Below, piece after piece: positions 3,851 through 29,741 of a stretch of 33,872 bases of DNA. Where the stretch lies: NCBI GenBank assembly GCA_025966315.1, contig JAOPUZ010000032.1, positions 1-33,872 of the forward strand, written 5' to 3'. Under the pieces are notes generated by a model. It was not told where the DNA came from. It did not search any database and saw nothing but the letters and a program-made list of their open reading frames with translations. Within the stretch, counting starts at the first letter, position 1; each line of letters opens with the position of its first letter. Source of the DNA: Frankiales bacterium (GTDB lineage: Bacteria; Actinomycetota; Actinomycetes; Mycobacteriales; Jatrophihabitantaceae). Position numbers and translations under genes: made by a program.

Positions 3851-4414
3851 TTAGGCCTCGCCATGGCGATGCTCAGCCAGTGCGTATTCGTGGTCATGGT
3901 GGATGAGTGATTGGCGTAGGTCGATGGCTTCTTCGTTTTGGTGTTGGAGGTGTTTTGTGCGTCCGGGCCATTCGTCGTGGTTGCGGTCGCAGGCGTCTTT
4001 GCCGAGTCGGGTGGTCATGCGGTCGTGGAATTGGACGAGGCTGTAGCGGTGCCAGTCTTCCATTGGTTGTGGTTCGAGGGCGTGTTCTGCGCGGCGGCGC
4101 ATGACGGCGAGCATGGCGAGTTCGTGGACGATGTGTGGGTGTGCGGGCCAGCAGGCTGGGATCATTCGGTCGCGTTGCCAGCAGTAGTCGTGGTTGAGCC
4201 AGTCGGCGACGCTGTCGAGCCATTGGTAGGTGTCGGTCCGTAGCCGTGGCCCGCAGCTGGCGGGGACCCACGGTCGGGGGAGCGCTGCGGGTGGGCCGAG
4301 TCGTTCTTTGTCTTCGTCGCTGCCGTATTGGGCTTGGGTGAGGTTGTTCAGTGCGGCCCGTACGGATGGCGGTTCGGGCGGGAAGGGCTGGACCAAGAGC
4401 TGGGCGTCGGTCAT
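3851..4414 (-). CDS. Small conserved-type protein, last gene of the tra operon
   Basis: 187 residues with no signal peptide or membrane segment. It is rich in Trp, His and Arg, with clusters such as WLNHDYCWQRDRMIPACWP (about 71-89) and WHRYSLVQFHDRM. The spacing of W, IP-x-CW and HP-x-x-x-x-EL resembles small DUF4913-like proteins of actinobacterial plasmids, but I cannot name the family firmly. It overlaps the coupling ATPase by 4 nt (ATGA), so it is translationally coupled and likely helps conjugation, for example as a coupling-protein partner or DNA-binding accessory. That role is inferred from position only. Confidence 0.65.
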   Translation of the reverse strand: MTDAQLLVQPFPPEPPSVRAALNNLTQAQYGSDEDKERLGPPAALPRPWVPASCGPRLRTDTYQWLDSVADWLNHDYCWQRDRMIPACWPAHPHIVHELAMLAVMRRRAEHALEPQPMEDWHRYSLVQFHDRMTTRLGKDACDRNHDEWPGRTKHLQHQNEEAIDLRQSLIHHDHEYALAEHRHGEA

Positions 4415-5877
4415 GGTGTGCCGCCGGTCTGTTTGCTGAGGCCGTGGACGTGGGCGTGTGCCAGGGCTTGTTCAGCCAGCTGTTTGGCGTTGGTTGTCTG
4501 GCCACGGCGCTGGCTGATTTCGGACAGGACAGTTTCTCGTTCGGCCAGCAGTTTCTTACCTGCTGGGCCTTCGACACAGCGGGCGAGGTCGAGGATGATG
4601 CCGCGGGCGTTTTCGGCGATGAGCAGTGCTTGGCGTTGCGGGAGCCGGCGGATCTCTTCCGGGCGCAGGACGGGTTCCCAGTCGCTGCTGTGCGAGGTGC
4701 CGGATCCGCCGGGCCCGGATGAGCGGGTGGTGCGGGTGACTGTGCGGCCGCCGAGCAGTTCAGACAGGCGCCGGTAGAAGTCCATGTTCTTGCCGCCGCC
4801 GAAGCCGATGAGGTTGTTGGTGAGCCCGAGCAGGGATTCGGCGGCGTCGGTGCCGTAGACCATTTTCAGTTGCCGTTCGTCTTGCGCGGCCCAGATGTAG
4901 CAGATGCCGAGGTCGCGGTCGTTGGCCATGCTGGTCAGCAGCGAGGGCAGCGGCGCGGTCGAGGGCAACTCATCGAGCAGCGCCAGAAACGGCGGGCAGA
5001 GTTTCGAGTGCGGACTGCGGGTGGCCAGGTCGCGTGCGACGTCCAGGACGTGTTCGGCGACCGCGGTCATGAGTGGTGATGCGGCCGAGTAGGGGTCTTC
5101 GCGGCCGAGCAGGTAGAGGGTGCCGTTGTCGCGGATCAGCTGCGCGATGTCGGTCGCGGGCCGGGCATCGCTGGGGGTGCAGCGGGCGCGGTAGTTGGAG
5201 TCGAAGAAGGTGCTCATTGCTTGCTGGATGGTGCTGATGGTGTTGCCGGAGGTCCGTTCGTCTTCGTTGAACAGTGCGCCGTGGAATTGGCCGTCCCAGT
5301 AGGGTTCGGCCATCGGGTGTGTGCTGAGGATTTCCTCGATTTTGTCGGCGTGTTTGCGGGGTTGGGATATCCAGGCCAGGACGTCGTCGAGGTCGCGGCC
5401 GGTGAGGGCCGCGGCGTGCAGCATTGCCTTGAGGACTTTCACGGTTTCTGCGGCGTAGTAGCGGGCGGCGCCGTCTTCGGTGCCGGTGGCCACCGCGCCG
5501 CTGACGGTGCCGGCGGCGAACGCCTTGGCGCGGCGTTCGGCGACGGTCGCGCTGACGCACCCGTCAAGCAGGTCCCACACGAGTTCGGGCGCGCCGGGGG
5601 CCATGTTGAACGGGTCGAGGACGACGACCGGGCCGGTGCGTGCACGATGTTGCAGGGTCAGGGCGAGGTCCTGCAGCTTGGTCAGTGTGGACAGCGCGGC
5701 GCCGCGGTGGCCGAGCAACGCCTGGAACAGCAGGTCCAGCGACTTCCCGGATCCTTGCGCGCCGATCACGCCGGTGGTGCGCGAGGCCAGGATCCACACC
5801 GGTTCACCCTTGGGTTGGCGTGATGTCCCCACTGGCCAGCCGCAGTCGTGGGGATCGAATCTCGTTGTGCCGGTCAT
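4411..5877 (-). CDS. VirD4/TraD-type coupling ATPase (soluble part)
   Basis: 488 residues. Walker A is GAQGSGKS (39-46) and Walker B is FLALLDEL (297-304), followed by a Q-rich sensor stretch (WAAQDERQL). The C-terminal part has the VLRPEEIRRLP and ALLIAENARG pattern of VirD4/TraG coupling proteins, which recruit the transferred DNA and feed it to the secretion channel. There is no membrane segment; the preceding two-TM ORF probably supplies it. The start at ATG 5877 overlaps that ORF's stop as ATGA. The same frame stays open to 6528, but that stretch is antisense-like low-complexity sequence overlapping two better genes. The Walker A is unusual (AQGSGKS rather than PTxSGKT). Confidence 0.85.
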   Translation of the reverse strand: MTGTTRFDPHDCGWPVGTSRQPKGEPVWILASRTTGVIGAQGSGKSLDLLFQALLGHRGAALSTLTKLQDLALTLQHRARTGPVVVLDPFNMAPGAPELVWDLLDGCVSATVAERRAKAFAAGTVSGAVATGTEDGAARYYAAETVKVLKAMLHAAALTGRDLDDVLAWISQPRKHADKIEEILSTHPMAEPYWDGQFHGALFNEDERTSGNTISTIQQAMSTFFDSNYRARCTPSDARPATDIAQLIRDNGTLYLLGREDPYSAASPLMTAVAEHVLDVARDLATRSPHSKLCPPFLALLDELPSTAPLPSLLTSMANDRDLGICYIWAAQDERQLKMVYGTDAAESLLGLTNNLIGFGGGKNMDFYRRLSELLGGRTVTRTTRSSGPGGSGTSHSSDWEPVLRPEEIRRLPQRQALLIAENARGIILDLARCVEGPAGKKLLAERETVLSEISQRRGQTTNAKQLAEQALAHAHVHGLSKQTGGTP

Positions 5878-6368
5878 CGGTGTTTCCGTCTCGGTAGGCC
5901 GAACACCGTGGCGTCCGGGTTCGATGTTCGGTAGAGATCGGGCCGGGTCAGTGCCCTGTTTCGGTAGAGGCGTTGCCGGCCGACGACGGCCCGCACTTCC
6001 TGCCGGGTGGCCATGCCATCGCGGCTGCTGGCCCCGCCGCTGGGACCGCCGGTCTGGCCGGCGTTGCGGACCAGCCAGCCCAGACCGGCCGCGGTCGTGA
6101 GTAGCAGCAGTTCCAGAAAGACGGCCACGGTGTAGACCAGGGCCGTCGGTGGCGCCGACAAGCCCGGTGCGAGCCCGACGCCGGGATGTCCGGCGAGCAG
6201 GCGGACCAGCCCGGGGACAGGGCGGCTGGGCCATAGCCAGCCCTGGCCGTGCAGCACGCCGGCCAGGCCCTGACCGACTCCGAGCAGCAGCACCGCGAAC
6301 ACCAGCATCATCGCGGCCAGCATCAGGATCAGTTGGCCCTGCGGTGCGGGACTGCGTCGCCGGCTCAT
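5874..6368 (-). CDS. Two-TM protein, probable membrane subunit of a split coupling protein
   Basis: 164 residues: a short basic N-terminus, TM helix at about 12-37, TM helix at about 76-101, then a cytoplasmic tail with ATRQEVRAVVGRQRLYRNRALTRPDL. In one-piece VirD4/TraD proteins two N-terminal TM helices and a similar linker precede the nucleotide-binding domain. Here the linker ends and the ATPase restarts in another frame through an ATGA overlap. I infer a natural split into membrane and motor subunits; a frameshift in a formerly fused gene is the alternative. It overlaps the upstream coiled-coil gene by 4 nt. Confidence 0.65.
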   Translation of the reverse strand: MSRRRSPAPQGQLILMLAAMMLVFAVLLLGVGQGLAGVLHGQGWLWPSRPVPGLVRLLAGHPGVGLAPGLSAPPTALVYTVAVFLELLLLTTAAGLGWLVRNAGQTGGPSGGASSRDGMATRQEVRAVVGRQRLYRNRALTRPDLYRTSNPDATVFGLPRRKHR

Positions 6369-7072
6369 CGCCGCGTCCCGCCGGCGTGACTGATATCGGA
6401 CGTGAGCTGGCGGGCGGCGGCGCGGTTCTGCGGGTTCTGCTGGTGGGTCTGGGCCTGGGTGACGCTGTCGGCCGCGCTCTGGCTGGCGGCGGTGCCGGCC
6501 GCGGCCGCGGTGGCCGGGTCCGGTTCACTGATCGAGGCGGGGCAGTCGGCGGCTAGGCGGTGCCGCAACTCTTCGGCCGGGCGCAGGACGGGTAGTTCTT
6601 CCTCGAGCGCGAGCGGGCCGATACGGTCCAGCACGTCGTAGCCGGCCTCGTGGGCCCGGTCGAACGCCGCGGCCAGCTCAGGCCAGTCACTGCCCAACGT
6701 CAACCGGGGATCGACCTGCTCAGCGAAGCGCCCCCACCGCCGTTGCGATTCCCGGGCGCCCTGCTCAGCGTGACGCTGGGCGTCGCGTTGGGCTTGTTCG
6801 GCTTGGCGTTGAGCCTGCTCGGCTTGGCGTTGGGCGTCTCGCGCGGCCTGTTCAGCGTGACGCTGGGCGTCGCGTTGGGCTTGTTCGGCCTGGCGTTGGA
6901 TGTCGCGGTCGATCTGCTGACGGTCGCGGTCGGCTTGCTGTGTCCGCAGCTGTTCTTCGCGGCGGCGTTGGGTGGCTTGTTGCAGGACGGTCTGGCCGGC
7001 GCCGGCGGCGGCCTGGATGAGTGAGGCCGCGGCGCGGGTGCCGTGTTCGGCGGCGGAATCGTGCTCGCTCAT
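6365..7072 (-). CDS. Coiled-coil Gln/Ala/Arg-rich repeat protein of the tra operon
   Basis: 235 residues. Residues about 35-112 form a long charged helix of repeats QRxAEQAxRDAQRH, predicted as coiled coil. A folded-looking middle (about 113-180: RFAEQVDPRLTLGSDWPELAAAFDRAHEAGYDV) and a polar Ala/Gln-rich tail follow. No signal, TM segment or nucleotide-binding motif. It sits between the VirB4-type ATPase and the coupling-protein genes, overlapping both as ATGA, so it may be a cytoplasmic adaptor between the two motors. Similar proteins occur in actinobacterial T4SS loci, but I know no defined function. Confidence 0.7.
   Translation of the reverse strand: MSEHDSAAEHGTRAAASLIQAAAGAGQTVLQQATQRRREEQLRTQQADRDRQQIDRDIQRQAEQAQRDAQRHAEQAARDAQRQAEQAQRQAEQAQRDAQRHAEQGARESQRRWGRFAEQVDPRLTLGSDWPELAAAFDRAHEAGYDVLDRIGPLALEEELPVLRPAEELRHRLAADCPASISEPDPATAAAAGTAASQSAADSVTQAQTHQQNPQNRAAARQLTSDISHAGGTRR
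6765..6900 (-). repeat. Internal 87-bp direct repeat encoding the coiled coil
   Basis: A stretch of about 49 bp starting at 6765 recurs almost perfectly at 6852. The period is 87 bp, equal to 29 codons, so the repeat is in frame and encodes the QRDAQRHAEQ-type helix. Such in-frame repeats can gain or lose units by slippage, changing coiled-coil length without breaking the gene. Confidence 0.75.
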
Positions 7073-11752: not shown

Positions 11753-12546
11753 CAGCTGATCCCGGCGAAGGGCACGTAGCCGGTGAGGTCACTCAGCACC
11801 GGCGGGATGCCTGGCTCGGTGTTGTCGAGGTAGAGCAGCCAGCTCCCGTTCCGCCACAGCCAAGTTCCGAGATTGGCGCGCATCACCCGGTTGCCGTCGA
11901 CGGCGTCGGTGTAGGTGATCACCAACTCGATCAGGGCTTTGCCGGGCGTGTAGTCATCGAAGCGGAACGCGGTCAACTGCGGGCGGACAGTGGCGTCCGG
12001 GGTCGGCGGCTGCGACGTGAGCAGCGACCGGCCCGGGCCGGTCACCAGGGCCCGGCGGACCGCATCCTGACCGACCGGGTTCAGCGACCCGATCCGCATC
12101 CAGGTCTGGCACGCCGCGAGCAGCGCTCCGGTCGCGGTGTCGGTGTAGCCCGTTGGGACGCCGTCGGTGACGGTGCGCGGGCCGGCGGTGGCCGAGGTGG
12201 GCAACGCGACCTGGTCCTGCAGCTGCCAGCCCACGCCAGTCGGGGCACTCGTCAACGCTGTCTGGTCCGCGCCCGGGGGGCCGGGCGGCGCTGGCGCTGG
12301 CAAAGAACCGGAGGATGGCGAGGACGATTCCTCTACGGGAGTGGATGAAACTGCTCGGTTGCTACTGCCGGGTGGTCGAGTGTGGTGATGCGTGATGACG
12401 GTAGTCAGGGTCGCCGCACCCAGCAGGAGAACGATCGCGATCGCGGCGACGCCGGTCCACAGCCGGCCGCCGAACCAGTCGCTGTTGGCGACATCGACGA
12501 AGGAACCCGACTGGTTCTCCTGCTCGTTCCGGTGTCTGCGGCTCAT
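11752..12546 (-). CDS. TcpC/VirB8-like bitopic conjugation protein
   Basis: 264 residues: a cytoplasmic N-terminus of about 30, one TM helix (about 31-52: LWTGVAAIAIVLLLGAATL), a Pro/Ser-rich linker, then an extracytoplasmic domain with ALLAACQTWMRIGS and the TAFRFDDYTPGKALIELVITY strands seen in conjugal transfer proteins of Gram-positive bacteria. VirB8/TcpC proteins organise the outer face of the channel. The start is ATG 12546, because it overlaps the previous stop as ATGA; the frame extends further upstream but only as antisense-like sequence within the previous gene. Confidence 0.75.
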   Translation of the reverse strand: MSRRHRNEQENQSGSFVDVANSDWFGGRLWTGVAAIAIVLLLGAATLTTVITHHHTRPPGSSNRAVSSTPVEESSSPSSGSLPAPAPPGPPGADQTALTSAPTGVGWQLQDQVALPTSATAGPRTVTDGVPTGYTDTATGALLAACQTWMRIGSLNPVGQDAVRRALVTGPGRSLLTSQPPTPDATVRPQLTAFRFDDYTPGKALIELVITYTDAVDGNRVMRANLGTWLWRNGSWLLYLDNTEPGIPPVLSDLTGYVPFAGIS

Positions 12547-13103
12547 GGCAGCAGCGTGTTCACGATGGTGCCTGCGCCGCCGATGAGGACGCAGCCGATC
12601 ATCACGTAGACCAGGCGTTCGCCCATCGGTTCGCCCCGTCGGTGTCGCAGCATCATCAGGACCCCGGTCCAGATGATGCCGAGGAGGCACATTCCTTCGG
12701 CGATATAGGCGGCGACTCCGATCCCGGTCTGTACTCCGCTCAGGCCCGGAACCGTTTCAGCGTCAGAGGTGAACAGGCTGAAGCCGAACATGCTTCCGGC
12801 CAGCGCCGAAGCGCTGGCCACGAGCGCGGCCCCGCCGAACCAGCGTCCCAACGCTTTGACATCCTCGGCGCCGCCACCCTGCTGGAAGTTCAGCACCATC
12901 TGAACCCCGACCCCGAGCAGGGTCGCAATCGCGATCGCGTCACCGATCCACGCGGTGTATCCGATCAGCGTCTGCATCATCCCCAGTCCTTTGACGGCGT
13001 TCGGGTCGCTGGGGTCGCTGTTCAGGCCGCTATCGGCCAGTATTTTCACCGAGCCCGATCCGAGTCGGCCTGCGGCGTGGATCAGTGCGTAGGACGTGCT
13101 CAT
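12543..13103 (-). CDS. Four-TM membrane protein with two VirB2-like halves
   Basis: 186 residues. Four hydrophobic helices (about 46-72, 86-104, 124-150, 160-182) form two pairs, each separated by a short basic loop (NFQQGGGAEDVKALGRWF and LRHRRGEPMGERLVY). Helix, basic hairpin, helix is the layout of VirB2/TrbC pilins, so this looks like a tandem duplication or fusion. The role as a pilin or channel component is inferred from topology and from its place just upstream of the VirB8-like gene. It has no signal peptide. Confidence 0.65.
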   Translation of the reverse strand: MSTSYALIHAAGRLGSGSVKILADSGLNSDPSDPNAVKGLGMMQTLIGYTAWIGDAIAIATLLGVGVQMVLNFQQGGGAEDVKALGRWFGGAALVASASALAGSMFGFSLFTSDAETVPGLSGVQTGIGVAAYIAEGMCLLGIIWTGVLMMLRHRRGEPMGERLVYVMIGCVLIGGAGTIVNTLLP

Positions 13104-18015: not shown

Positions 18016-18277
18016 CGCCCACGTTCGTCAGGCGTCTGGACGGAGTCCGGTCGGCCGCCTACGTACAGCTCACATGAGTCAGCAGCACTCGCTGTTGGCA
18101 GGTATTTCATGACATACTTCCGGTTCGCTTGGACTCACACGAGGCCGATTGACGCATGTGTCTAACGTCAGTCCGAACTATAGCCATAAGGATCACGTCT
18201 GTGTCAAACCCTTTGGAGCGTCGCTGCTACTTTCGGCCTTGGGGAAGCTGACGGCGGCGAATGGTTAGGGGTAAGTG
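18016..18277. promoter_or_regulatory. Divergent control region between tra operon and XRE operon
   Basis: This is the only gap between the leftward transfer operon and the rightward regulator-integration block, so promoters for both should lie here. A TTGACG begins at 18149, and AT-rich patches with TATAG follow at 18179-18183, but the spacing is not ideal. TCTAACGTC at 18161 is one base from the TCTAACGTT repeat flanking parAB. AGGGG just before 18278 is the ribosome site of the XRE gene. The XRE protein probably binds here. Confidence 0.45.
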
Positions 18278-18766
18278 ATGGCAGACGACAAGGCCGAGGA
18301 GGTGGACGCGTCGGCGCTAACGCTCGACACGTTCGCTGGACGACTCAACTACTTGTTCCAAACCGTGCATCCGAGGGGGCAGCGTCCCTTCAGCTACGAC
18401 CACGTCGCGGAGTCGATTACTAAGGAACGGGGCATCGACATATCTGCGAACTACATCTGGATGCTTCGCTCGGGACGTCGAGACAACCCAACGCTGCGTC
18501 ACATGGAAGGACTTGCGTGGTTCTTCGGAGTCAGCCCGGCCTTTCTCAGCGATGCCGAGGAAGCGGGGCGGGTGCGAGAACAGCTCGACAAACTCAGCAC
18601 CATCGCGGACAGCGGACTGCAGCACGTAGCAATGCGAGGAGGCTCCGTTGGCGACAACACGTTGGACGTCATCCATGCGCTCCTAGATCAAGTTCGACAA
18701 CTTACCGATGGCATGGTGACCGGTCCCCGTGTGCCTGAGAAACCAGACCGTGACGCAAAGGAGTGA
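18278..18766 (+). CDS. EspR-like XRE transcription regulator
   Basis: 162 residues from ATG 18278 (a GTG three bases upstream is also in frame). The N-terminal half, TFAGRLNYLFQTVHP through ANYIWMLRSGRRDNPT to LAWFFGVSPAFLSD, closely follows the HTH of mycobacterial EspR (RLNRLF, YLSQLRSGNRTNPS, LANFFRIKAAYF). The recognition helix is around YIWMLRSGRR. A helical tail (DKLSTIADSGLQHVAMR) probably dimerises. It is the first gene of a four-gene operon with an ImmA-type protease, the classic repressor/anti-repressor arrangement of mobile elements. I infer that it controls the divergent tra operon and/or xis-int. Confidence 0.8.
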   Translation: MADDKAEEVDASALTLDTFAGRLNYLFQTVHPRGQRPFSYDHVAESITKERGIDISANYIWMLRSGRRDNPTLRHMEGLAWFFGVSPAFLSDAEEAGRVREQLDKLSTIADSGLQHVAMRGGSVGDNTLDVIHALLDQVRQLTDGMVTGPRVPEKPDRDAKE

Positions 18767-18775
18767 CGCAGTCCC

Positions 18776-19303
18776 GTGAAGACGACAGAACAGCACCGGC
18801 TTCGACGACGCTGTGACGATTTGCTGCGACAGGTCAGCATTCCTACTCCGTGGGACCTACGGGACTTCCTTGAGAACCTGGGCGAACAGCGCTCTCGGCC
18901 TATCGTGCTGGCCGAAGCACCCGCACTGGCAGATCAGTCCGTCAGCGCACAATGGTGGAAGCAATCCGACGCCGACGTCATCCTTTATGCGCCGACACAG
19001 AGCACCTTCTATCTCGAGCTCAACGTCTTTCATGAGGTCGGGCACATGCTGTGCGGGCACGACAAGCGCTACACGCCCTTTTCGGAGCAGGACATGGAGG
19101 CCCTTACGTCGGCACCTGGTGCGGCCTCGATCATCTTTTCGCGAAGCTCTCGATTCGACTCGGACGAGGAGCGCGAGGCTGAGTTCACGGCCTATCGCCT
19201 CAAGCTCATGATCGAGCGAGGGACAACGGTGGCAGACGACGACCCTACGAACGCTCATATGCGGAAAGCGATGAGACGAGCCCTAGGCAACGCAGACGCC
19301 TGA
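18776..19303 (+). CDS. ImmA/IrrE-type zinc metalloprotease
   Basis: 175 residues from GTG 18776, with AAGGAG at 18759-18764. The zinc motif is HEVGH in NVFHEVGHMLCGHDK, and a downstream Glu in EEREAEFTAYRLKL gives the third ligand (ExxAxxFA-type helix). ImmA of ICEBs1 and IrrE of Deinococcus use this fold to cleave a partner repressor. Immediate linkage to an XRE gene suggests the same here. No membrane segment. The stop overlaps the next ATG as TGATG, so the membrane gene is translationally coupled. Confidence 0.85.
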   Translation: MKTTEQHRLRRRCDDLLRQVSIPTPWDLRDFLENLGEQRSRPIVLAEAPALADQSVSAQWWKQSDADVILYAPTQSTFYLELNVFHEVGHMLCGHDKRYTPFSEQDMEALTSAPGAASIIFSRSSRFDSDEEREAEFTAYRLKLMIERGTTVADDDPTNAHMRKAMRRALGNADA

Positions 19304-20448
19304 TGCTGAGGGACGTCCTCGACAACCTGCAGCTGACCGGCGCGATCGTGGTGTGGGTCGTTACGGTCACTCGCGTCGCAATGATTCGCAAGCCAAGTAG
19401 CCGAGTGCTCTGGTTTGCCTTGTTTGCACTTGCGGTCGGTCAAACACTTCAAGTCGAGCCCGTCTATCGCGCGGTCGACAACGCCGCTGGAACGCCTGGT
19501 GCAGCTGCGCTGGTCAAACACGCAGCCGCCCTGTTCGCTGCTGCAAACACAGCCTCGATTGTCGCAACTCTCGTCGGCGCGAAACCGCGGAATCAGCAAA
19601 GGGCCCGACTCGCCATGGCGGTCGCTCTTATGTTGAGTGTGGTTCCCTGGCTCATCAGACCGCCTGCGGCTGTGCCGCCGAGCCTTCTGCAACGAGCCGA
19701 ATACTACGACTCAACGGCACGCGGCCTGGTCCACTGGATGGCGTTCTTGTCCTATCTCGGCTGGACACTCTGGATCGCCAGCCGCATCTGCTGGCGGTTC
19801 CGACGGATCGAGAGCAACCGCGACAGTCGCATTGGGGTAACCATGGTGGGTGCTGGCACGACGATTGGACTTGGCTACGTGGCCGAGAAGACTTTGACCG
19901 AAGTTGCCTGGGCGAGTGGCCACGGGCCGGCCTTCGTGCTGTTCGATCAGACTGCAGAAGCGATCATTCTCGCCGCATCGGTGTCGTTGATCGCCGTCGG
20001 AACGGCTTACCAAGCAGCAACAACGCGGATCGCGCAGCGCATCGGACATCACCGAGATCACGCGGCCTGGCAACGGATTCGACCACTCGCCCTACGCCTG
20101 CAAGTCGAGTTCCCTGACATTCAGACGCCCGTCGGACTGTCGTCGTCCGAACGACTCGTTGCCGCGTTAGCCACGACCCACGAAGGACTACGACGGCTCA
20201 CCGCCTACCTGCCGCCATCGAGTTTGGCCGAAGCGGCCCTGACCCGGCGGGACTGCGCTGCGCACTGGTTGCACGAGGCCTTGAGCATCAAGGCAGCCGG
20301 TAATCCACCACAACACGCGATGACTGCCTTACCACTGTCCGACAGCGGACTGACCCGCGAGAGTGCCATCGATTTAGCACTCGTGTACCGCGATTCGATC
20401 GAAGCCCGCGAGCGACGCCCCGCTCGCCAATTGGAGTCAAGACGATGA
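19303..20448 (+). CDS. Seven-TM protein, MAB_1171c-like putative transporter
   Basis: 381 residues. Hydrophobic helices lie at about 10-27, 33-52, 66-88, 98-116, 139-160, 178-200 and 213-235. They are followed by a cytoplasmic helical domain (about 236-381) with RIRPLALRLQVEFPDI and LRRLTAYLPPSSL. The organisation and the neighbouring XRE/ImmA genes match the group annotated as MAB_1171c-family putative transporter in actinobacteria, whose substrate is unknown. The soluble domain could alternatively make it a sensor that signals to the protease or regulator. It overlaps the oxygenase gene by ATGA. Confidence 0.65.
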   Translation: MLRDVLDNLQLTGAIVVWVVTVTRVAMIRKPSSRVLWFALFALAVGQTLQVEPVYRAVDNAAGTPGAAALVKHAAALFAAANTASIVATLVGAKPRNQQRARLAMAVALMLSVVPWLIRPPAAVPPSLLQRAEYYDSTARGLVHWMAFLSYLGWTLWIASRICWRFRRIESNRDSRIGVTMVGAGTTIGLGYVAEKTLTEVAWASGHGPAFVLFDQTAEAIILAASVSLIAVGTAYQAATTRIAQRIGHHRDHAAWQRIRPLALRLQVEFPDIQTPVGLSSSERLVAALATTHEGLRRLTAYLPPSSLAEAALTRRDCAAHWLHEALSIKAAGNPPQHAMTALPLSDSGLTRESAIDLALVYRDSIEARERRPARQLESRR

Positions 20449-21275
20449 CGAATACTCCGGATCCCGTCGCGCTGGCAAGGGCCCACGAGATCTACCGGTA
20501 TGCAGCCATGTTCGATCTGGTTCGCGATTTTCGCGTCGGGCTCAACCTCGCGTTCTATCGCACGTTCGCTGTGCCTCGGATAGCCGAGCTGCTCGTCAGG
20601 ACGGGCGAGATGCAGCGGCAGCCGCACAAGCGCTCGATGGACACCGGTCTTTTCATGTACGAGTTGATCGAAGCCGGTTTCGAGAGCGAGCGAGGGCTGC
20701 GGGTCGTCGACGCCTTGAACAAGATGCATCAGCGATGGCCCATCGATCCAGAGGACTACCGGTATGTACTGCTGACTTTCGTCGTGGTGCCTACGCGCTG
20801 GATCAACAGCTATGGACCACGACCGCTCTCGGACCGTGAGACCGACGCGATTCTCTACTTCTACCGCGAGCTCGGCCGGCGAATGGCCATCGTCAACTTG
20901 CCCGCGACCTACCAAGACGCCGAGCAGATCTTTGACGAGTACGAGCTAAAGAACGTCCGATTCAGTTCGGCCGGCCAGGCTCTGATGCAAACGACCGAGG
21001 ACGTGATGGCCCGCCAACTCCCCGGACCTCTCAAGTCGGCGGGCAGATTGCTGACCCGGCTAATTCTCGACGACTATGTGGCGCGAGCCATCGGGCTCAA
21101 GCCGGCGCCGCGAACAGGGCAGGCGCTTATGCGCGCGGTGGCGCGGATTCGGCGACGCCGCAACGCTCGGAGGACGCCGCGGAACGAGAGCTGGTTCCAG
21201 CCGGGACGAAGGGTCGATGGCGTCTATCCCGGTGGCTACGAATTCGAAGAGCTTGGACCTCCCAATCTGGACTAG
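20445..21275 (+). CDS. MpaB/rubber-oxygenase-fold (DUF2236) putative haem oxygenase
   Basis: 276 residues. RSMDT gives R63 and T67, and NKMHQRW gives H95. The spacing R-x3-T then a His about 28 residues later matches Arg164/Thr168/His198 of the latex-clearing protein Lcp, where the His binds haem. PEDYRYVLLTFVVVPTRWI and YFYRELGRRMAIVNLP are further hallmarks of the MpaB/rubber oxygenase domain (PF09995). Known members cleave isoprenoid or polyunsaturated chains oxidatively. The C-terminus is basic (IRRRRNARRTPR). There is no signal peptide, so it is cytoplasmic or membrane-associated. Its place in an XRE-ImmA-membrane operon suggests making or destroying a lipophilic signal, which is inference. 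Confidence 0.75.
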   Translation: MTNTPDPVALARAHEIYRYAAMFDLVRDFRVGLNLAFYRTFAVPRIAELLVRTGEMQRQPHKRSMDTGLFMYELIEAGFESERGLRVVDALNKMHQRWPIDPEDYRYVLLTFVVVPTRWINSYGPRPLSDRETDAILYFYRELGRRMAIVNLPATYQDAEQIFDEYELKNVRFSSAGQALMQTTEDVMARQLPGPLKSAGRLLTRLILDDYVARAIGLKPAPRTGQALMRAVARIRRRRNARRTPRNESWFQPGRRVDGVYPGGYEFEELGPPNLD

Positions 21276-21342
21276 TGTTAGATACGGTGTCAACTGTAGT
21301 TAGATAGACGGCTAACGACGGCTACCTGACAGGGGGCACCAC
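21276..21342 (+). promoter_or_regulatory. xis-int control region with GTTAGATA direct repeat
   Basis: GTTAGATA occurs at 21277-21284 and again at 21299-21306, 22 bp apart or about two helical turns, between the oxygenase stop and xis. This is a plausible operator for the XRE regulator or for Xis itself. AGGGGG at 21331-21336 is the xis ribosome site. No clear -35/-10 pair is visible. Confidence 0.45.
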
Positions 21343-21552
21343 ATGGAAGAGCTCGGCGAGCCACTGCTCACCGTCGAGGAGGCAGCGAGCAGGTTAAATA
21401 CCGGCGTCCGATTCCCGCGCCGGCTGATCGCCGAACGGCGGATCGCGTACGTCAAGGTTGGGCGACACGTGAGAATCCCTGCGGCCGCCCTAGCCGCGTA
21501 CATCGATTCCGCTACCGTGAGTCCGGTTCAAGCAGCAACCCGGCGAAGGTAG
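21343..21552 (+). CDS. xis: Excisionase (MerR-like/HTH_17 DNA-binding protein)
   Basis: 69 residues. LTVEEAASRLN is the first helix-turn of an HTH_17 excisionase; RFPRRLIAERRIAYVKVGRHVRIP is the usual second half, where R-x-I-P-x-x-x-L closes the winged motif. Such proteins bind the att arms and bias the integrase towards excision. It ends two bases before the integrase start, so the two are co-translated. Confidence 0.8.
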   Translation: MEELGEPLLTVEEAASRLNTGVRFPRRLIAERRIAYVKVGRHVRIPAAALAAYIDSATVSPVQAATRRR

Positions 21553-21554
21553 TT

Positions 21555-22904
21555 TTGGTGGCAAAGCGACGCATGTTCGGCTGGGTGAGAGCCCTCCCAT
21601 CGGGACGCTTCCAAGCGTCTTATCTTGGCCCCAATGGAGCGAGGCGCGTTGCGCCCTCGACGTTTGCGACCAAGGGTGACGCAGATATCTGGTTGACAGT
21701 AGTTCGCGCCAGCATCATTGCGGGAAATTGGCGCGACCCCGAGGCGGGGCGCCAATTTTTTGGACAGTACGCACAGACGTGGATTGCGCAGCGGCCCGGT
21801 CTGAGGCCACGAACAATCGATCTCTACGAGTGGCTATACGGTCGGCATCTGGAGACCACCTTCTCAAGGGTTGCGCTGGAGGATATGACCCCAGTACTCG
21901 TGCGGGATTGGTACCACCAGCTCTCCGTCGATGGAGTCTCGCAGTCGATGAGAGCAAAGGCTTACCGACTGTTACGAGCCGTGCTCAACACTGCGGTTGA
22001 TGACGGCACGATCGATCGGAACCCGTGCCGGATCCGCAGCGGCGGCAAGGAGGGCGCGGGCGAGCGGCCGACGCTGAGCATCGAACAGGTCTTCGCGCTC
22101 TGTGAAGCAGTACCGCCGCGGTTCGCGACCTTTATTGCCCTAAAAACCTTCGGCAGCTTGCGCTGGGGGGAAATCACTGCCCTTCGGTGTAGCGACGTCG
22201 ACCTCGCCACTGGGGTCCTATTTGTCCACGCCGCATGGGTGGAACGTTCCACCGGCGCTATGGAGCTTGGTCCGCCAAAGTCTCCCGCCAGCATCAGAGC
22301 TATCGCTCTGCCGCTGCCCGTTGTGGATATGCTGCGACAGCACCTTGCCGCCTTCGTTGAAGACGGTCCTGACCCACTGATCTTCACCGGCCCGAGCGGC
22401 CGGCCGCTTCGTCGCAGCAACTTCAACAAGGCCGTCAATTGGGCTACTGCTGTGGCTAGCATCGGTGTGCCTCACCTGCACCTGCACGATTTACGGCACA
22501 CTGGAAATACGCTTGCCGCCGGAACACCCGGCACGTCAACGCGAGACCTGATGGAGAGGATGGGCCACGAAACGATGACCGCAGCCCTCATCTATCAGCA
22601 CGCCACCCGGAAGGCCGACCGTCGTATTGCCGAGGCGCTCGGGGTCGTCATCGCCGAGTCCGCGCCTGCGCCGTCCGGGGCCGTTACAGCACGCGAACAG
22701 CACGCGACCGTCGGCAGGTCCTCCGTGAATCCCTACCGAAGCGCTGCACGCCCCGTATTACGGGGCCTTCGTCCTGGAGCGGGTGACGAGAATCGAACTC
22801 GCACTGTCAGCTTGGGAAATCTAGCGTTTTCGGCTGGGAATCACCTAGAGGTGGCCAAATCCGGCGTTCTCGATGATGAGAACACCTCCGGTGAGTCACC
22901 TTGA
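21555..22904 (+). CDS. int: Tyrosine site-specific integrase
   Basis: 449 residues from TTG 21555 (GTG 21558 is equally good). An Arm-binding N-terminus (1-65) and SAM-like core-binding domain (about 66-160) precede the catalytic domain. R203 (SLRWGE), K242, H311 and R314 (HLHDLRHTGN), H338 (MGHET) and nucleophile Y347 (ALIYQHAT) are all present. It catalyses integration at, and with Xis excision from, a tRNA-Gly gene. From about residue 407 the frame runs through the tRNA core (DENRTRTVSLGN), so the last ~40 codons would differ between the free and integrated states. The C-terminal 90 residues are beyond the catalytic domain and probably dispensable. Confidence 0.9.
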   Translation: MVAKRRMFGWVRALPSGRFQASYLGPNGARRVAPSTFATKGDADIWLTVVRASIIAGNWRDPEAGRQFFGQYAQTWIAQRPGLRPRTIDLYEWLYGRHLETTFSRVALEDMTPVLVRDWYHQLSVDGVSQSMRAKAYRLLRAVLNTAVDDGTIDRNPCRIRSGGKEGAGERPTLSIEQVFALCEAVPPRFATFIALKTFGSLRWGEITALRCSDVDLATGVLFVHAAWVERSTGAMELGPPKSPASIRAIALPLPVVDMLRQHLAAFVEDGPDPLIFTGPSGRPLRRSNFNKAVNWATAVASIGVPHLHLHDLRHTGNTLAAGTPGTSTRDLMERMGHETMTAALIYQHATRKADRRIAEALGVVIAESAPAPSGAVTAREQHATVGRSSVNPYRSAARPVLRGLRPGAGDENRTRTVSLGNLAFSAGNHLEVAKSGVLDDENTSGESP

Positions 22905-24797: not shown

Positions 24798-25508
24798 ATG
24801 CCGAAAAAGGTCGTCGTCGGATCACGTAAGGGCGGGGTCGGGAAAAGCACCATGGCCTACGAGGTGGCCTATGTGCTGGGAGCCGTCCTGGTTGATTTCG
24901 AGTGGGACGGCGACAGTGTCAGCCGCCGTTGGGGTTATCGACACGAGGAGCGTGCGACGGACCCGCTGATGGCGGCTCTGGACAAGGGCCGAACACCGCG
25001 AGTCTTGAAAGGCTTTCGTAAGCCCGATCTGGTTCCGGGTAGCCCGCTGCTCTTGGATGCCACGTTGACCCCGGATGAGTTTGCTGATGCCATCGCAAAG
25101 TGGGCCGAGGAGTGGGGCCGTGATTTGGTGGTGGATACCCATCCTGGAGCGAGCGCGTCGGCGCACGGGGCGATGTCGGTCGCGGACGTCATCTGCGTGC
25201 CTACCGGGCTCAAGACCGGTGACCTGAATGGCACGGAGCAGATGGTCAAGGAGATGCTGGACTATCCGCTGGTGATCGTTCCCAACATGGTTCGGCGTGT
25301 ACCGCCTGCAGCGGAGATTAAGCGACTCACCTCGATTGTTGAGGGAACACCCGTCCGGGTCGGACCACCGATCCCTTTTGTGGGTGCGGTTGAGGTCCGC
25401 AAGCGGCGCATCGCCATGACGGCAGAAAATCCGGTACCGCGAGCCATCCTGAAGGTGGTCGACGCGTACCGCGATCTGGGAGCATTCGTGCAGGAGTACG
25501 TGTCGTGA
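24798..25508 (+). CDS. parA: ParA-type partition ATPase
   Basis: 236 residues. Deviant Walker A SRKGGVGKST (8-17) with both lysines intact, AVLVDFEWDGDSVSRRWG as the switch I strand, and DLVVDTHPGAS as Walker B. There is no N-terminal HTH, so it is the short ParA class in which the partner (ParB) represses the operon. It segregates the plasmid by surfing on the nucleoid. The start at ATG 24798 lies just after the TAACG repeats. It overlaps parB by ATGA-type overlap (GTGA). Confidence 0.85.
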   Translation: MPKKVVVGSRKGGVGKSTMAYEVAYVLGAVLVDFEWDGDSVSRRWGYRHEERATDPLMAALDKGRTPRVLKGFRKPDLVPGSPLLLDATLTPDEFADAIAKWAEEWGRDLVVDTHPGASASAHGAMSVADVICVPTGLKTGDLNGTEQMVKEMLDYPLVIVPNMVRRVPPAAEIKRLTSIVEGTPVRVGPPIPFVGAVEVRKRRIAMTAENPVPRAILKVVDAYRDLGAFVQEYVS

Positions 25509-28316: not shown

Positions 28317-29741
28317 GGCTCTTCCGGATTGAGGGTGTAGCGCTCGGCGCGTCGGTCACTGGGTGAGGGTCGAGGTCTTCCGATGATGGGAGTTCTCACA
28401 CAACCCGTCCGGAAGACCTCGACGTGCCTAACGCTACTTTCTCCTGCCCTGATTTGACCACGTTCTGCCGCCTGGACCAGCTGGGTCTGCAGGTCCTCGG
28501 GCAACGACTCGAGCCCGGCGCGGCGGTGCTGGCGCAGGGTCGAGCCGGGCGAGTTCGACCGGTGGTGTCGGCGTTGCGGGGGCGAAGGGGTCGCGCGTGA
28601 CAGCGTCACGCGACGTCTGGCGCACGAGCCGTTCGGGTGGCGGCCAACGACGCTGCTGGTCACGATTAGCCGCTACCGGTGCGCCTCGTGTCGACACGTG
28701 TGGCGGCAGGACGCCGGCCGGGCGGCCGAGCCGCGGGCGAAGCTGTCGCGGCGTGCGTTGCGCTGGGCGTTAGAGGCGATCGTGTGTCAGCACCTGACCG
28801 TGGCTCGGGTCGCCGAGGCGCTCGCCGTTTCGTGGAACACCGCCAACGCAGCCGTGCTGGCCGAAGGACGGCGGGTGCTGATCAACGATCCGGATCGGTT
28901 CGACGGCGTCAGCGTGATTGGCGTCGATGAACATGTGTGGCGTCACACGCGTCGCGGCGACAAGTACGTCACGGTGGTCATCGATCTCACGCCGGTGCGC
29001 GACGGCACCGGGCCGGCGCGTCTGCTGGACATGGTCGAGGGCCGCTCGAAACAGGTGTTCAAGGACTGGCTCGAAGCCCAGACAGCCCAGTTCCGTAACG
29101 GGATCGAAGTCGTCGCGATGGACGGGTTCACCGGCTTCAAGACCGCGGCGAGTGAAGAACTGCCCGACGCGGTCGCGGTGATGGACCCGTTCCATGTCGT
29201 CGCCTTGGTCGGCGACGCCGTCGATCGATGCCGACAGCGGGTCCAGCAACACACCTGCGGGCATCGCGGCCGGACCGGTGATCCGCTCTACGGCATCCGC
29301 CGTGTGCTGCGCACCGGCGTCGAGCTGCTCACCGACAAACAACACGCCCGCATAGTCGCGGTGTTCGCCGACGAGCGGCATGTCGAGGTCGAAGCCACCT
29401 GGGGCATCTACCAGCGCATCGTCGCCGCCTACCGCGATCCCGACCGCGGCGCGGCCAAGGCCGCGCTCACGAAGATCATCACCACGATCAGCAAGAACGT
29501 GCCGACCGAACTGAGCGAGCTGACCACCCTCGGCAACACCCTGAAACGCCGCGCCGCCGACGTGCTCGCCTACTTCGACCGGCCCGGCACCAGCAACGGA
29601 CCCACCGAGGCCATCAACGGCCGCCTTGAACACCTCCGCGGCTCAGCCCTCGGCTTCCGCAACCTCACCAACTACGTCGCCAGATCTCTACTCGAAACCG
29701 GCGGATTCAGACCACGACTACACCCTCGATCCGGATGAGCC
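28317..29741 (+). mobile_element. ISL3-family insertion sequence with 8-bp target duplication
   Basis: The element is 1,425 bp. Its 24-bp ends (28317-28340 and the reverse complement of 29718-29741) read GGCTCWTCCGGATYGAGGGT... with two mismatches. GGATTACG occurs at 28309-28316 and again at 29742-29749, an 8-bp target duplication as expected for ISL3 transposition. The target was already decayed sequence near the resolvase remnant. Identical duplications imply a recent insertion. Confidence 0.9.
28424..29738 (+). pseudogene. ISL3-family transposase, frameshifted near its 5' end
   Basis: GTG 28424 opens a frame PNATFSCPDLTTFCRLDQLGL that ends prematurely. From about 28530 the protein continues in another frame (EFDRWCRRCGGEGVARDSV, CASCRHVWRQ zinc-binding region) to the DDE domain: D in VIGVDEHVWRH, D in VAMDGFTGFK and E in TEAINGRLEH. 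The frame difference equals a 2-nt loss (or 1-nt gain) close to CTGGCGCAGG, where a Cys codon of the first zinc motif would be expected. Unless translated by frameshifting or from an internal start, the transposase is incomplete. Confidence 0.8.

What the first reader, a model, noticed from the sequence alone, without database searches (positions are those of the whole stretch)
18278..21275. XRE - ImmA protease - seven-TM protein - haem-oxygenase-fold operon
Four translationally linked genes sit between the transfer operon and xis-int. XRE plus ImmA is a proven switch in ICEBs1. Here it is joined to a MAB_1171c-like membrane protein and an MpaB/Lcp-fold enzyme with conserved R63/T67/H95. A lipid- or isoprenoid-derived signal, made or destroyed by the oxygenase and moved or sensed by the membrane protein, could release the repressor and trigger transfer. 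I know of no description of this as an ICE control system, and it is the best candidate for a new system here.
Basis: partly seen in the sequence, partly recalled or inferred. Interest (0 to 1): 0.8.

Follow-up and report, generated by a model that had tools for sequence, protein, structure and literature searches.

The report
Seven-helix protein, protease, repressor operon
This mobile element carries a copy of a widespread but apparently undescribed bacterial gene set (a DNA-binding repressor, a protease, a seven-helix membrane protein shaped like a receptor, and an interchangeable enzyme) that looks like a chemical-sensing switch and may control when the element leaves the chromosome.

Summary
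The set is not peculiar to ICEs. It is one copy of a common actinobacterial unit: M78-like protease plus 7TM protein with a DUF6545-type tail, usually an EspR-like XRE in front, and an exchangeable enzyme behind. The 7TM family is in 62 of 296 sampled genomes of the class; protease-7TM adjacency holds in 64 of 80 class loci, with the XRE too in 40 of 80. The enzyme varies (PAP2-like, FAD monooxygenase-like, MpaB, others) but follows the 7TM tree: 14 changes, 49 when shuffled. XRE genes of the family share an upstream palindrome. The 7TM model resembles GPCRs and rhodopsins, with non-significant scores. Most copies are far from integrases, and 18 related xis-int loci lack protease and 7TM genes. 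Here, the xis promoter carries a partial XRE-type palindrome that 17 scored relatives lack. Best reading: a ligand-gated, BlaR1-like switch, possibly captured to control excision.

The parts
18278..18766 (+). EspR-like XRE repressor (P0001, 162 aa)
   Evidence: PDB EspR entries 4ndw, 3r1f, 3qf3: E 8e-18 to 1e-17; no Pfam hit
18776..19303 (+). ImmA/IrrE-like (M78) metalloprotease (P0002, 175 aa), HEVGH
   Evidence: Pfam M78 E 0.031, below cut-off; invariant H86 E87 H90 R123 E132 E136 in 54 sequences; model's best fold match PprI 8sln, prob 0.89, E 0.066
19303..20448 (+). Seven-helix membrane protein of the MAB_1171c kind with a diverged DUF6545-type C-terminal domain (P0003, 381 aa)
   Evidence: NF042915 E 1.3e-25, below cut-off; AlphaFold2 pLDDT 88.6; the 50 listed Foldseek hits are GPCRs and rhodopsins, E 0.045 or worse; DUF6545 matched in relative L041, not in P0003 itself
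20445..21275 (+). MpaB/Lcp-type oxygenase (P0004, 276 aa)
   Evidence: PF09995 E 1.9e-17; R63/T67/H95 8 of 8 in 7TM-linked relatives
18159..18166 (-). GTTAGACA word, candidate operator in the XRE control region
   Evidence: one of 3 GTTAGAYA in the window, 0.32 expected; chosen after looking
21277..21284 (+). GTTAGATA word, candidate operator in the xis control region
21299..21306 (+). GTTAGATA word, second copy in the xis control region
21288..21305 (+). Partial copy of the family XRE palindrome (TGTCAACTGTAGTTAGAT)
   Evidence: 9.03 bits with a matrix trained without the window; 7th best in the window, so not significant window-wide
21343..21552 (+). Excisionase (xis)
   Evidence: TIGR01764 E 3e-16, PF12728 E 3.2e-11
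21555..22904 (+). Tyrosine integrase
   Evidence: PF00589 E 2e-12
22777..22821 (.). att core matching the 3' end of tRNA-Gly(CCC)
4411..6528 (-). TraD/TraG-type coupling protein
   Evidence: PF12696 E 2.3e-25
12543..13103 (-). TrbC/VirB2-type pilin
   Evidence: PF04956 E 4.9e-10

Best explanation
The four genes are one copy of an autoregulated, ligand-gated actinobacterial module. The EspR-like XRE represses its own operon at an upstream palindrome. The 7TM protein (outside N-terminus, cytoplasmic tail) senses a lipophilic small molecule and passes the signal to the cytoplasmic M78-like protease, which cleaves or disables the XRE. This derepresses the operon, including an enzyme (here an MpaB/Lcp-type oxygenase) that modifies the same ligand or its precursor. 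In logic this is BlaR1-BlaI-BlaZ (recalled) with sensor and protease on separate proteins. In this element the module lies next to xis-int and the XRE may also repress xis, so the same signal would free the element to excise. Shown by computation: the operon, the recurring protease-7TM unit, the kept protease residues, the family palindrome, the enzyme-7TM lineage match. Inferred: ligand sensing, protease activation, XRE cleavage, control of xis.
For: Gene order: ImmA-like gene upstream on the same strand (within 900 bp) of 154 of 186 7TM genes and EspR-like XRE (within 2.2 kb) of 115 of 186 (includes places fetched twice and loci cut by contig ends); by enzyme type both are present in 36 of 38 PAP2-type and 6 of 8 MpaB-type cases. 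Reverse: 34 of 37 matches of the protease model lie within 1 kb of a 7TM gene (the model was built from 7TM-linked proteases, so it favours these). Enzyme coupling: 71 of 158 downstream ORFs overlap the 7TM stop by exactly 4 or 8 bp; enzyme label changes 14 times on the 7TM tree, minimum 9, shuffled mean 49.1, 0 of 200 as low. Autoregulation: AGTTGAC upstream of 46 of 138 XRE genes, 3.6 in shuffles; palindrome YGTCAACTNNAGTTGACR at 10 bits or more in 73 of 137, 0 of 138 shuffled (the 137 are also the training set); 61 of 85 strong sites in the 250 bp upstream of XRE. Receptor topology. HExxH in 170 of 170 protease ORFs. Link to xis: GTTAGAYA; such a private shared word in 4 of 393 random region pairs; xis-promoter site 9.03 bits, 17 scored relatives at most 5.5.
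Against: The XRE is not a constant part: the tight order XRE-ImmA-7TM is in 40 of 80 class loci, and of the 20 FAD-type cases only 5 have both XRE and protease detected; the U328 (5) and U401 (4) types have no XRE detected. The window copy is deviant: its 7TM protein has AATTHE where relatives mostly have RREIRD; the D is kept in 79 of 83 class-sample relatives, the E in 48 of 83, and its tree branch is very long. Its own XRE promoter lacks a good family palindrome (best 4.0 bits). The xis-promoter site is only 7th best in the window, below the mean top score of shuffled windows, 12.1 bits, and GTTAGAYA was noticed by eye before testing. No ligand, cleavage or binding has been measured. Fold matches of the 7TM and ImmA models are not significant (best E 0.045 and 0.066). 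Six of 40 7TM genes in 16 genomes have no such protease within 1 kb.
Confidence: 0.5

Rival explanations
1. Pheromone circuit: the enzyme makes rather than removes the signal, and the 7TM protein senses it, so the module is a quorum or mating switch like RapI-PhrI with ImmA-ImmR in ICEBs1.
For: Enzyme type follows the 7TM lineage; in ICEBs1 a sensor-pheromone cassette raises ImmA activity (passages of PMC6540685).
Against: Several enzyme types look degradative (amidase, amidohydrolase, alpha/beta hydrolase, beta-lactamase family); none of the four genes here is an evident exporter, apart from the 7TM protein's NCBI name.
Confidence: 0.2
2. Cargo: the cassette is an ordinary chromosomal stress or metabolic module that landed next to xis-int and does not control the element.
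For: 18 related xis-int loci have no protease or 7TM gene upstream; two of them have an XRE-model match alone (L365 E 2e-5, L359 E 7e-3). Most copies are not near integrases; P0003 has lost conserved residues.
Against: xis has its own control region with an XRE-like site that 17 scored relatives lack; GTTAGAYA confined to the two control regions.
Confidence: 0.35
3. Phage-defence or toxin-antitoxin-like unit with a variable effector (Xre-COG2856 or CapH-CapP type).
For: Xre-COG2856 pairs were proposed as TA-like three-component systems (passages of PMC2701414); P0001 matches capH weakly, E 0.0018.
Against: No other PADLOC match at E up to 0.1; the downstream genes that could be named are metabolic enzymes rather than toxins; two 7TM queries matched no phage record.
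Confidence: 0.1
4. The MAB_1171c-like protein is a transporter, as its NCBI name says, and ImmA/XRE respond to the cytoplasmic level of its substrate.
For: NCBI name; a MAB_1171c knockout lowers biofilm mass by about half and that paper calls the protein transport-related (passages of PMC8707978).
Against: Seven long helices with outside N-terminus by charge and a cytoplasmic tail; the 50 listed Foldseek hits are receptors and rhodopsins, though not significant.
Confidence: 0.2

Closest known systems
ICEBs1 ImmR-ImmA with RapI-PhrI (passages of PMC6540685)
   Same: XRE repressor plus M78 protease beside xis and int on an integrative element; a sensor cassette raises protease activity
   Different: XRE is EspR-like; the sensor would be a 7TM protein with an enzyme instead of RapI-PhrI; the module is mostly not near integrases
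BlaR1-BlaI-BlaZ (recalled)
   Same: Proposed logic: membrane sensor, metalloprotease, repressor and the enzyme acting on the signal, in one autoregulated unit
   Different: Sensor and protease are separate proteins of other folds; the enzyme is exchangeable
EspR, a nucleoid-associated protein of M. tuberculosis (PDB 4ndw, 3r1f, 3qf3)
   Same: HTH and C-terminal region align over about 125 residues
   Different: Here in an operon with a protease; the family palindrome is found mainly upstream of the XRE genes themselves within the stretches scanned
Xre-COG2856 pairs (Makarova 2009, passages of PMC2701414)
   Same: XRE plus M78 protease pair, proposed to control an unknown third component
   Different: Third and fourth components are a 7TM protein and a metabolic enzyme, not RelE or PIN toxins
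MAB_1171c family NF042915 / DUF6545
   Same: P0003 matches NF042915 along nearly its whole length
   Different: Below the curated cut-off; conserved C-terminal motif lost

Membership tests
EspR-like XRE | Alignment over HTH and C-terminal region | tested here: met
   E 8e-18, residues 14-140
EspR-like XRE | Genome-wide nucleoid binding | not testable with these tools
   No binding data
M78 / ImmA-IrrE protease | Pfam PF06114 gathering score | tested here: not met
   14.5 bits, cut-off 22
M78 / ImmA-IrrE protease | HExxH and downstream Glu | tested here: met
   HEVGH at 86-90, E132 and E136 invariant in 54 sequences; which Glu binds zinc not tested
M78 / ImmA-IrrE protease | IrrE/PprI-like fold | tested here: inconclusive
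   Best PDB match PprI, prob 0.89, E 0.066, TM 0.38 of the query; IrrE at ranks 3 and 5
MAB_1171c (NF042915) | Curated score cut-off 100 bits | tested here: not met
   90.2 bits, E 1.3e-25
MAB_1171c (NF042915) | Seven helices plus DUF6545 tail | tested here: inconclusive
   Seven long helices and a helical tail in the model; P0003 itself has no Pfam DUF6545 match and the tail motif is diverged
MPAB_Lcp_cat (PF09995) | Gathering score | tested here: met
   64.5 bits, cut-off 23
MPAB_Lcp_cat (PF09995) | Haem binding and oxygenase activity | not testable with these tools
   Candidate ligands R63/T67/H95 8 of 8 in 7TM-linked relatives; H95 22 of 22, R63 19 of 22, T67 14 of 23 in broader relatives; role of these residues recalled
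ICEBs1-type ImmR/ImmA control of an ICE | Module next to xis-int on a conjugative element | tested here: met
   transfer ability itself not tested
ICEBs1-type ImmR/ImmA control of an ICE | Repressor sites at both its own and the xis promoter | tested here: inconclusive
   GTTAGAYA in both; family palindrome at xis only, 9.03 bits against 4.0 at XRE
ICEBs1-type ImmR/ImmA control of an ICE | Protease cleaves repressor and frees excision | not testable with these tools
   needs bench work
GPCR / rhodopsin fold | Significant structural match | tested here: inconclusive
   Listed Foldseek hits are receptors and rhodopsins, prob up to 1.00, but E at least 0.045 and TM-scores 0.19-0.55

The most novel reading that the evidence does not exclude
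Actinobacteria carry a large family of GPCR-topology seven-helix receptors that signal by switching on a partner metalloprotease which destroys an EspR-like repressor. Each receptor lineage has its own cognate enzyme that makes or removes the ligand, and here an integrative conjugative element has captured one such receptor circuit to decide when to excise.
Probability: 0.3. Interest if true: 0.88.

Novelty: new variant of a known kind. Interest (0 to 1): 0.62.

Why it matters
What activates ImmA/IrrE-type proteases is known for only a few members (recalled). A unit in which such a protease is usually paired with one membrane protein and one matched enzyme gives a direct handle on that question, and offers a candidate family of bacterial small-molecule receptors, common in antibiotic-producing genera. 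If the element uses it, lipid or isoprenoid signals could control gene transfer in actinobacteria. Papers outside that library were not searched.

Tried and rejected
ICEBs1-style ImmR as the identity of the XRE: rejected, it is EspR-like. A general ICE control system: not supported by the integrase neighbourhoods. Plasmid or phage spread: P0003 matched no plasmid or phage; the more central 7TM protein of L057 matched one Streptomyces plasmid and no phage. A window-wide claim for the palindrome: rejected, the xis site ranks 7th in the window and shuffled windows give a mean top score of 12.1 bits. My first MpaB model was poor because some training rows were short; a second model from P0004 relatives was used from then on. 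The near-invariance of the EIRD motif in the named loci is partly by construction, since the pattern that fetched them contains it; I recounted in 83 7TM genes of the class sample, where it is weaker. A first wording that XRE-ImmA-7TM is in most class loci was wrong; the recount gives 40 of 80. Single-protein search of genome contigs with P0003 found nothing. A complex prediction of 7TM with ImmA was not on offer.

Limits of the counts: the 182 loci include several places fetched twice (for example L057 and L244), loci cut by contig ends, and loci fetched through P0004, which inflate the MpaB count. MpaB follows none of the 7TM genes of the class-wide regions L032-L111 and one of the 80 named loci (L281). 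The enzyme clusters rest on a mechanical choice of the downstream ORF by third-position GC and length, and most cluster names on one or two scanned members; PAP2 and FAD types were scanned more fully. 50 of the 158 downstream ORFs are singletons. Of the many integrase relatives listed I fetched 19 loci plus the start of contig C66; L355 begins at xis and L373 holds an integrase fragment, so 18 could be judged upstream. These 18 include L371 (second integrase of one genome) and L372 (the window's own genome). 17 xis promoters were scored; L360 gave no xis match, and the xis start was assumed about 215 nt before its stop. One search gave 47 protease matches in 22 genomes; I dropped 10 from the six genomes not searched for the 7TM family, leaving 37. 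Integrases were searched in 14 genomes; one search uses only integrases picked by me as lying on a 7TM contig. The integrase model's control, 19 of 19 loci, is lenient, since those are relatives of P0006, which is in the model.
Full report
What is there. Four + strand genes fill 18278-21275 with a 9 bp gap, a 1 bp overlap and a 4 bp overlap. They lie between transfer genes on the other strand (TraD/TraG-type coupling protein, TrbC/VirB2-type pilin) and xis-int. The 3' end of int carries a 45-base stretch like the 3' end of a tRNA-Gly(CCC) gene found intact on contig C66, next to a 99% copy of the int end. So an integrative element is well supported, although what lies to the right of that core in the window (tandem element, circular form or chromosome) is not settled.

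The four proteins. P0001 is EspR-like (E 8e-18). P0002 falls below the M78 cut-off, but 170 of 170 ORFs that match its subfamily model contain HExxH, six residues are invariant in 54 aligned sequences, and its AlphaFold2 model (pLDDT 82.1) has PprI as best PDB match and IrrE at ranks 3 and 5, none significant. P0003 matches the MAB_1171c family below its cut-off. Its model (pLDDT 88.6) has seven long helices and a helical tail, positive charges lie in the loops expected to be inside, and the 50 Foldseek hits listed are GPCRs and microbial rhodopsins, with weak E-values (0.045 at best) and TM-scores of 0.19-0.55. P0004 is an MpaB/Lcp-type protein with R63, T67 and H95 invariant in the 8 members that follow a 7TM gene; among 30 broader relatives H95 is constant where aligned (22 of 22), R63 in 19 of 22 and T67 in 14 of 23.

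A widespread unit. The 7TM family is found in 62 of 296 genomes of the class, with up to six copies in one genome, and in none of 14 control genomes. I took 80 regions around these hits, 20 further regions and 80 named loci (at least 454 relatives found, including two Chloroflexi MAGs). In the 80 class loci the protease directly precedes the 7TM gene in 64 and the tight order XRE-protease-7TM is seen in 40. Over all 182 loci and 186 7TM genes, the protease lies upstream on the same strand in 154 and the XRE in 115. The XRE depends on the type: XRE and protease are both present in 36 of 38 PAP2-type and 6 of 8 MpaB-type cases, but in 5 of 20 FAD-type cases and none of the U328 (5) and U401 (4) types. 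So the protease-7TM pair is the core, and the EspR-like XRE is a usual but not constant partner; whether other regulators replace it was not examined. In reverse, 34 of 37 matches of the protease model in 16 genomes lie within 1 kb of a 7TM gene, and 34 of 40 7TM genes have the protease within 1 kb; the model was built from 7TM-linked proteases, which favours this result.

An exchangeable, matched enzyme. 158 of 185 7TM genes have a downstream ORF, and 71 of the 158 overlap the 7TM stop by exactly 4 or 8 bp. Main clusters: PAP2-like (38; 15 of 16 scanned match PF01569 at E up to 0.01), FAD monooxygenase-like (20; 19 of 20 match QhpG and 18 of 20 the geranylgeranyl reductase family at E up to 0.001, far below cut-offs in the one member whose scores are shown), MpaB (8, six of them fetched through P0004), amidohydrolase (5), amidase (3), SDR (3), and single cases such as a methyltransferase and a beta-lactamase-family protein. 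50 ORFs are singletons, and several scanned ones match no Pfam family. On a tree of 87 7TM proteins ten enzyme labels need 14 changes (minimum 9; shuffled mean 49.1; 0 of 200 shuffles as low). So receptor and enzyme are inherited as matched pairs with occasional swaps. MpaB needs 4 changes, 3 of them forced by well supported branches, which suggests repeated recruitment, though the window row sits on a very long branch and the tool warns about such joins.

A family operator. Without prior assumption, AGTTGAC is enriched upstream of XRE genes (46 of 138, 3.6 in shuffles). A motif trained on 137 upstream regions without the window, seeded with that word in several arrangements, scores best as the palindrome YGTCAACTNNAGTTGACR, also when symmetry is not imposed. 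It reaches 10 bits in 73 of 137 regions and 0 of 138 shuffled ones, and 61 of 85 strong sites lie in the 250 bp upstream of XRE. The positional count is partly circular, since those regions were the training set. The module is therefore probably autoregulated and mostly local.

Does it control this element? For: GTTAGAYA occurs three times in the window, 0.32 expected, all in the XRE and xis control regions; such a private word is found in 4 of 393 random region pairs; the xis promoter holds a 9.03-bit partial palindrome, while 17 related xis promoters reach 5.5 at most. Against: the site is 7th best in the window; the window XRE's own promoter reaches only 4.0 bits; GTTAGAYA was chosen after looking; 18 related xis-int loci have no protease or 7TM gene in the upstream stretch fetched (about 7 to 9 kb), and only two show an XRE-model match (L365 E 2e-5, L359 E 7e-3); and only 6 of 38 7TM sites in 14 genomes are within 10 kb of an integrase (four separate loci, the window included; about 1.0 expected by uniform chance). 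That is a mild excess, not a rule, and short contigs hide some neighbours. The integrase model finds 19 of 19 relatives of this integrase, a lenient control.

Mechanism. The simplest account is a ligand-gated operon: 7TM protein senses, protease acts, XRE falls, enzyme rises. BlaR1-BlaI-BlaZ (recalled) is the nearest logic; ICEBs1 ImmR-ImmA with RapI-PhrI (passages of PMC6540685) is the nearest case on an integrative element. Whether the enzyme removes or makes the ligand is open. The enzyme set (PAP2-like, isoprenoid-type oxygenase and reductase-like, hydrolases) fits lipophilic ligands; the hydrolases lean towards removal. This is inference from family names.

A caution about the window copy. 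Its 7TM protein has AATTHE where relatives mostly have RREIRD (D kept in 79 of 83, E in 48 of 83), so signalling through the tail may be altered or lost here. A family member with the standard motif is the better subject for a first test.

Novelty. Ten literature searches that ran gave no description of the module; one paper in that library names MAB_1171c, a knockout study that I read in passages. Parts and logic are known kinds; the combination, its scale and the receptor-enzyme matching appear new. I rate it a new variant of a known kind. The recount of the XRE narrows the three-gene claim to some enzyme types; since the window's MpaB type is among those with the XRE, I left the odds as they were.

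Noticed in passing
22666-22821: The end of int plus a 45-base tRNA-Gly(CCC) 3' end also occurs at the start of contig C66, there followed by the intact tRNA gene; in the window other DNA follows. Circular attP form or two tandem elements would explain it.
   Followed up: partly
28698-29738: ISL3-family transposase to the right of the integrase (PF01610, E 1.9e-55).
   Followed up: no
24798-25508: ParA-like ATPase gene beyond the att core (best match E 4.3e-6, just under cut-off), perhaps part of a second element.
   Followed up: no
L077:6372-11870 and L080:6369-11926: Two XRE-ImmA-7TM modules in tandem, each pair 5 to 9 kb from an integrase in one genome.
   Followed up: partly
L056:680-6010: PAP2-type module about 1 kb from a divergent tyrosine integrase gene, a second case beside an integrase.
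   Followed up: partly
L057:8182-8784 and relatives (A5): The PAP2-like proteins read SRVxLRDHTxAQ in consensus, with Q where the PAP2 signature (recalled) has the catalytic D, so they may not be ordinary phosphatases.
   Followed up: no
L074:8110-9207: Beta-lactamase-family protein (PF00144, E 1.9e-67) overlapping the 7TM stop by 4 bp, one of several different enzymes in that position.
   Followed up: no
L085-L101, FAD-type loci: Most FAD-type copies have no EspR-like XRE detected beside the protease (both in 5 of 20); another regulator may take its place.
   Followed up: no
L296, L304: Relatives of the 7TM protein in two Chloroflexi MAGs, outside Actinomycetota.
   Followed up: no
window 1-33872: GC content is 59-63% across the cassette and int but 66-73% across the transfer genes, which suggests separate origins.
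   Followed up: no
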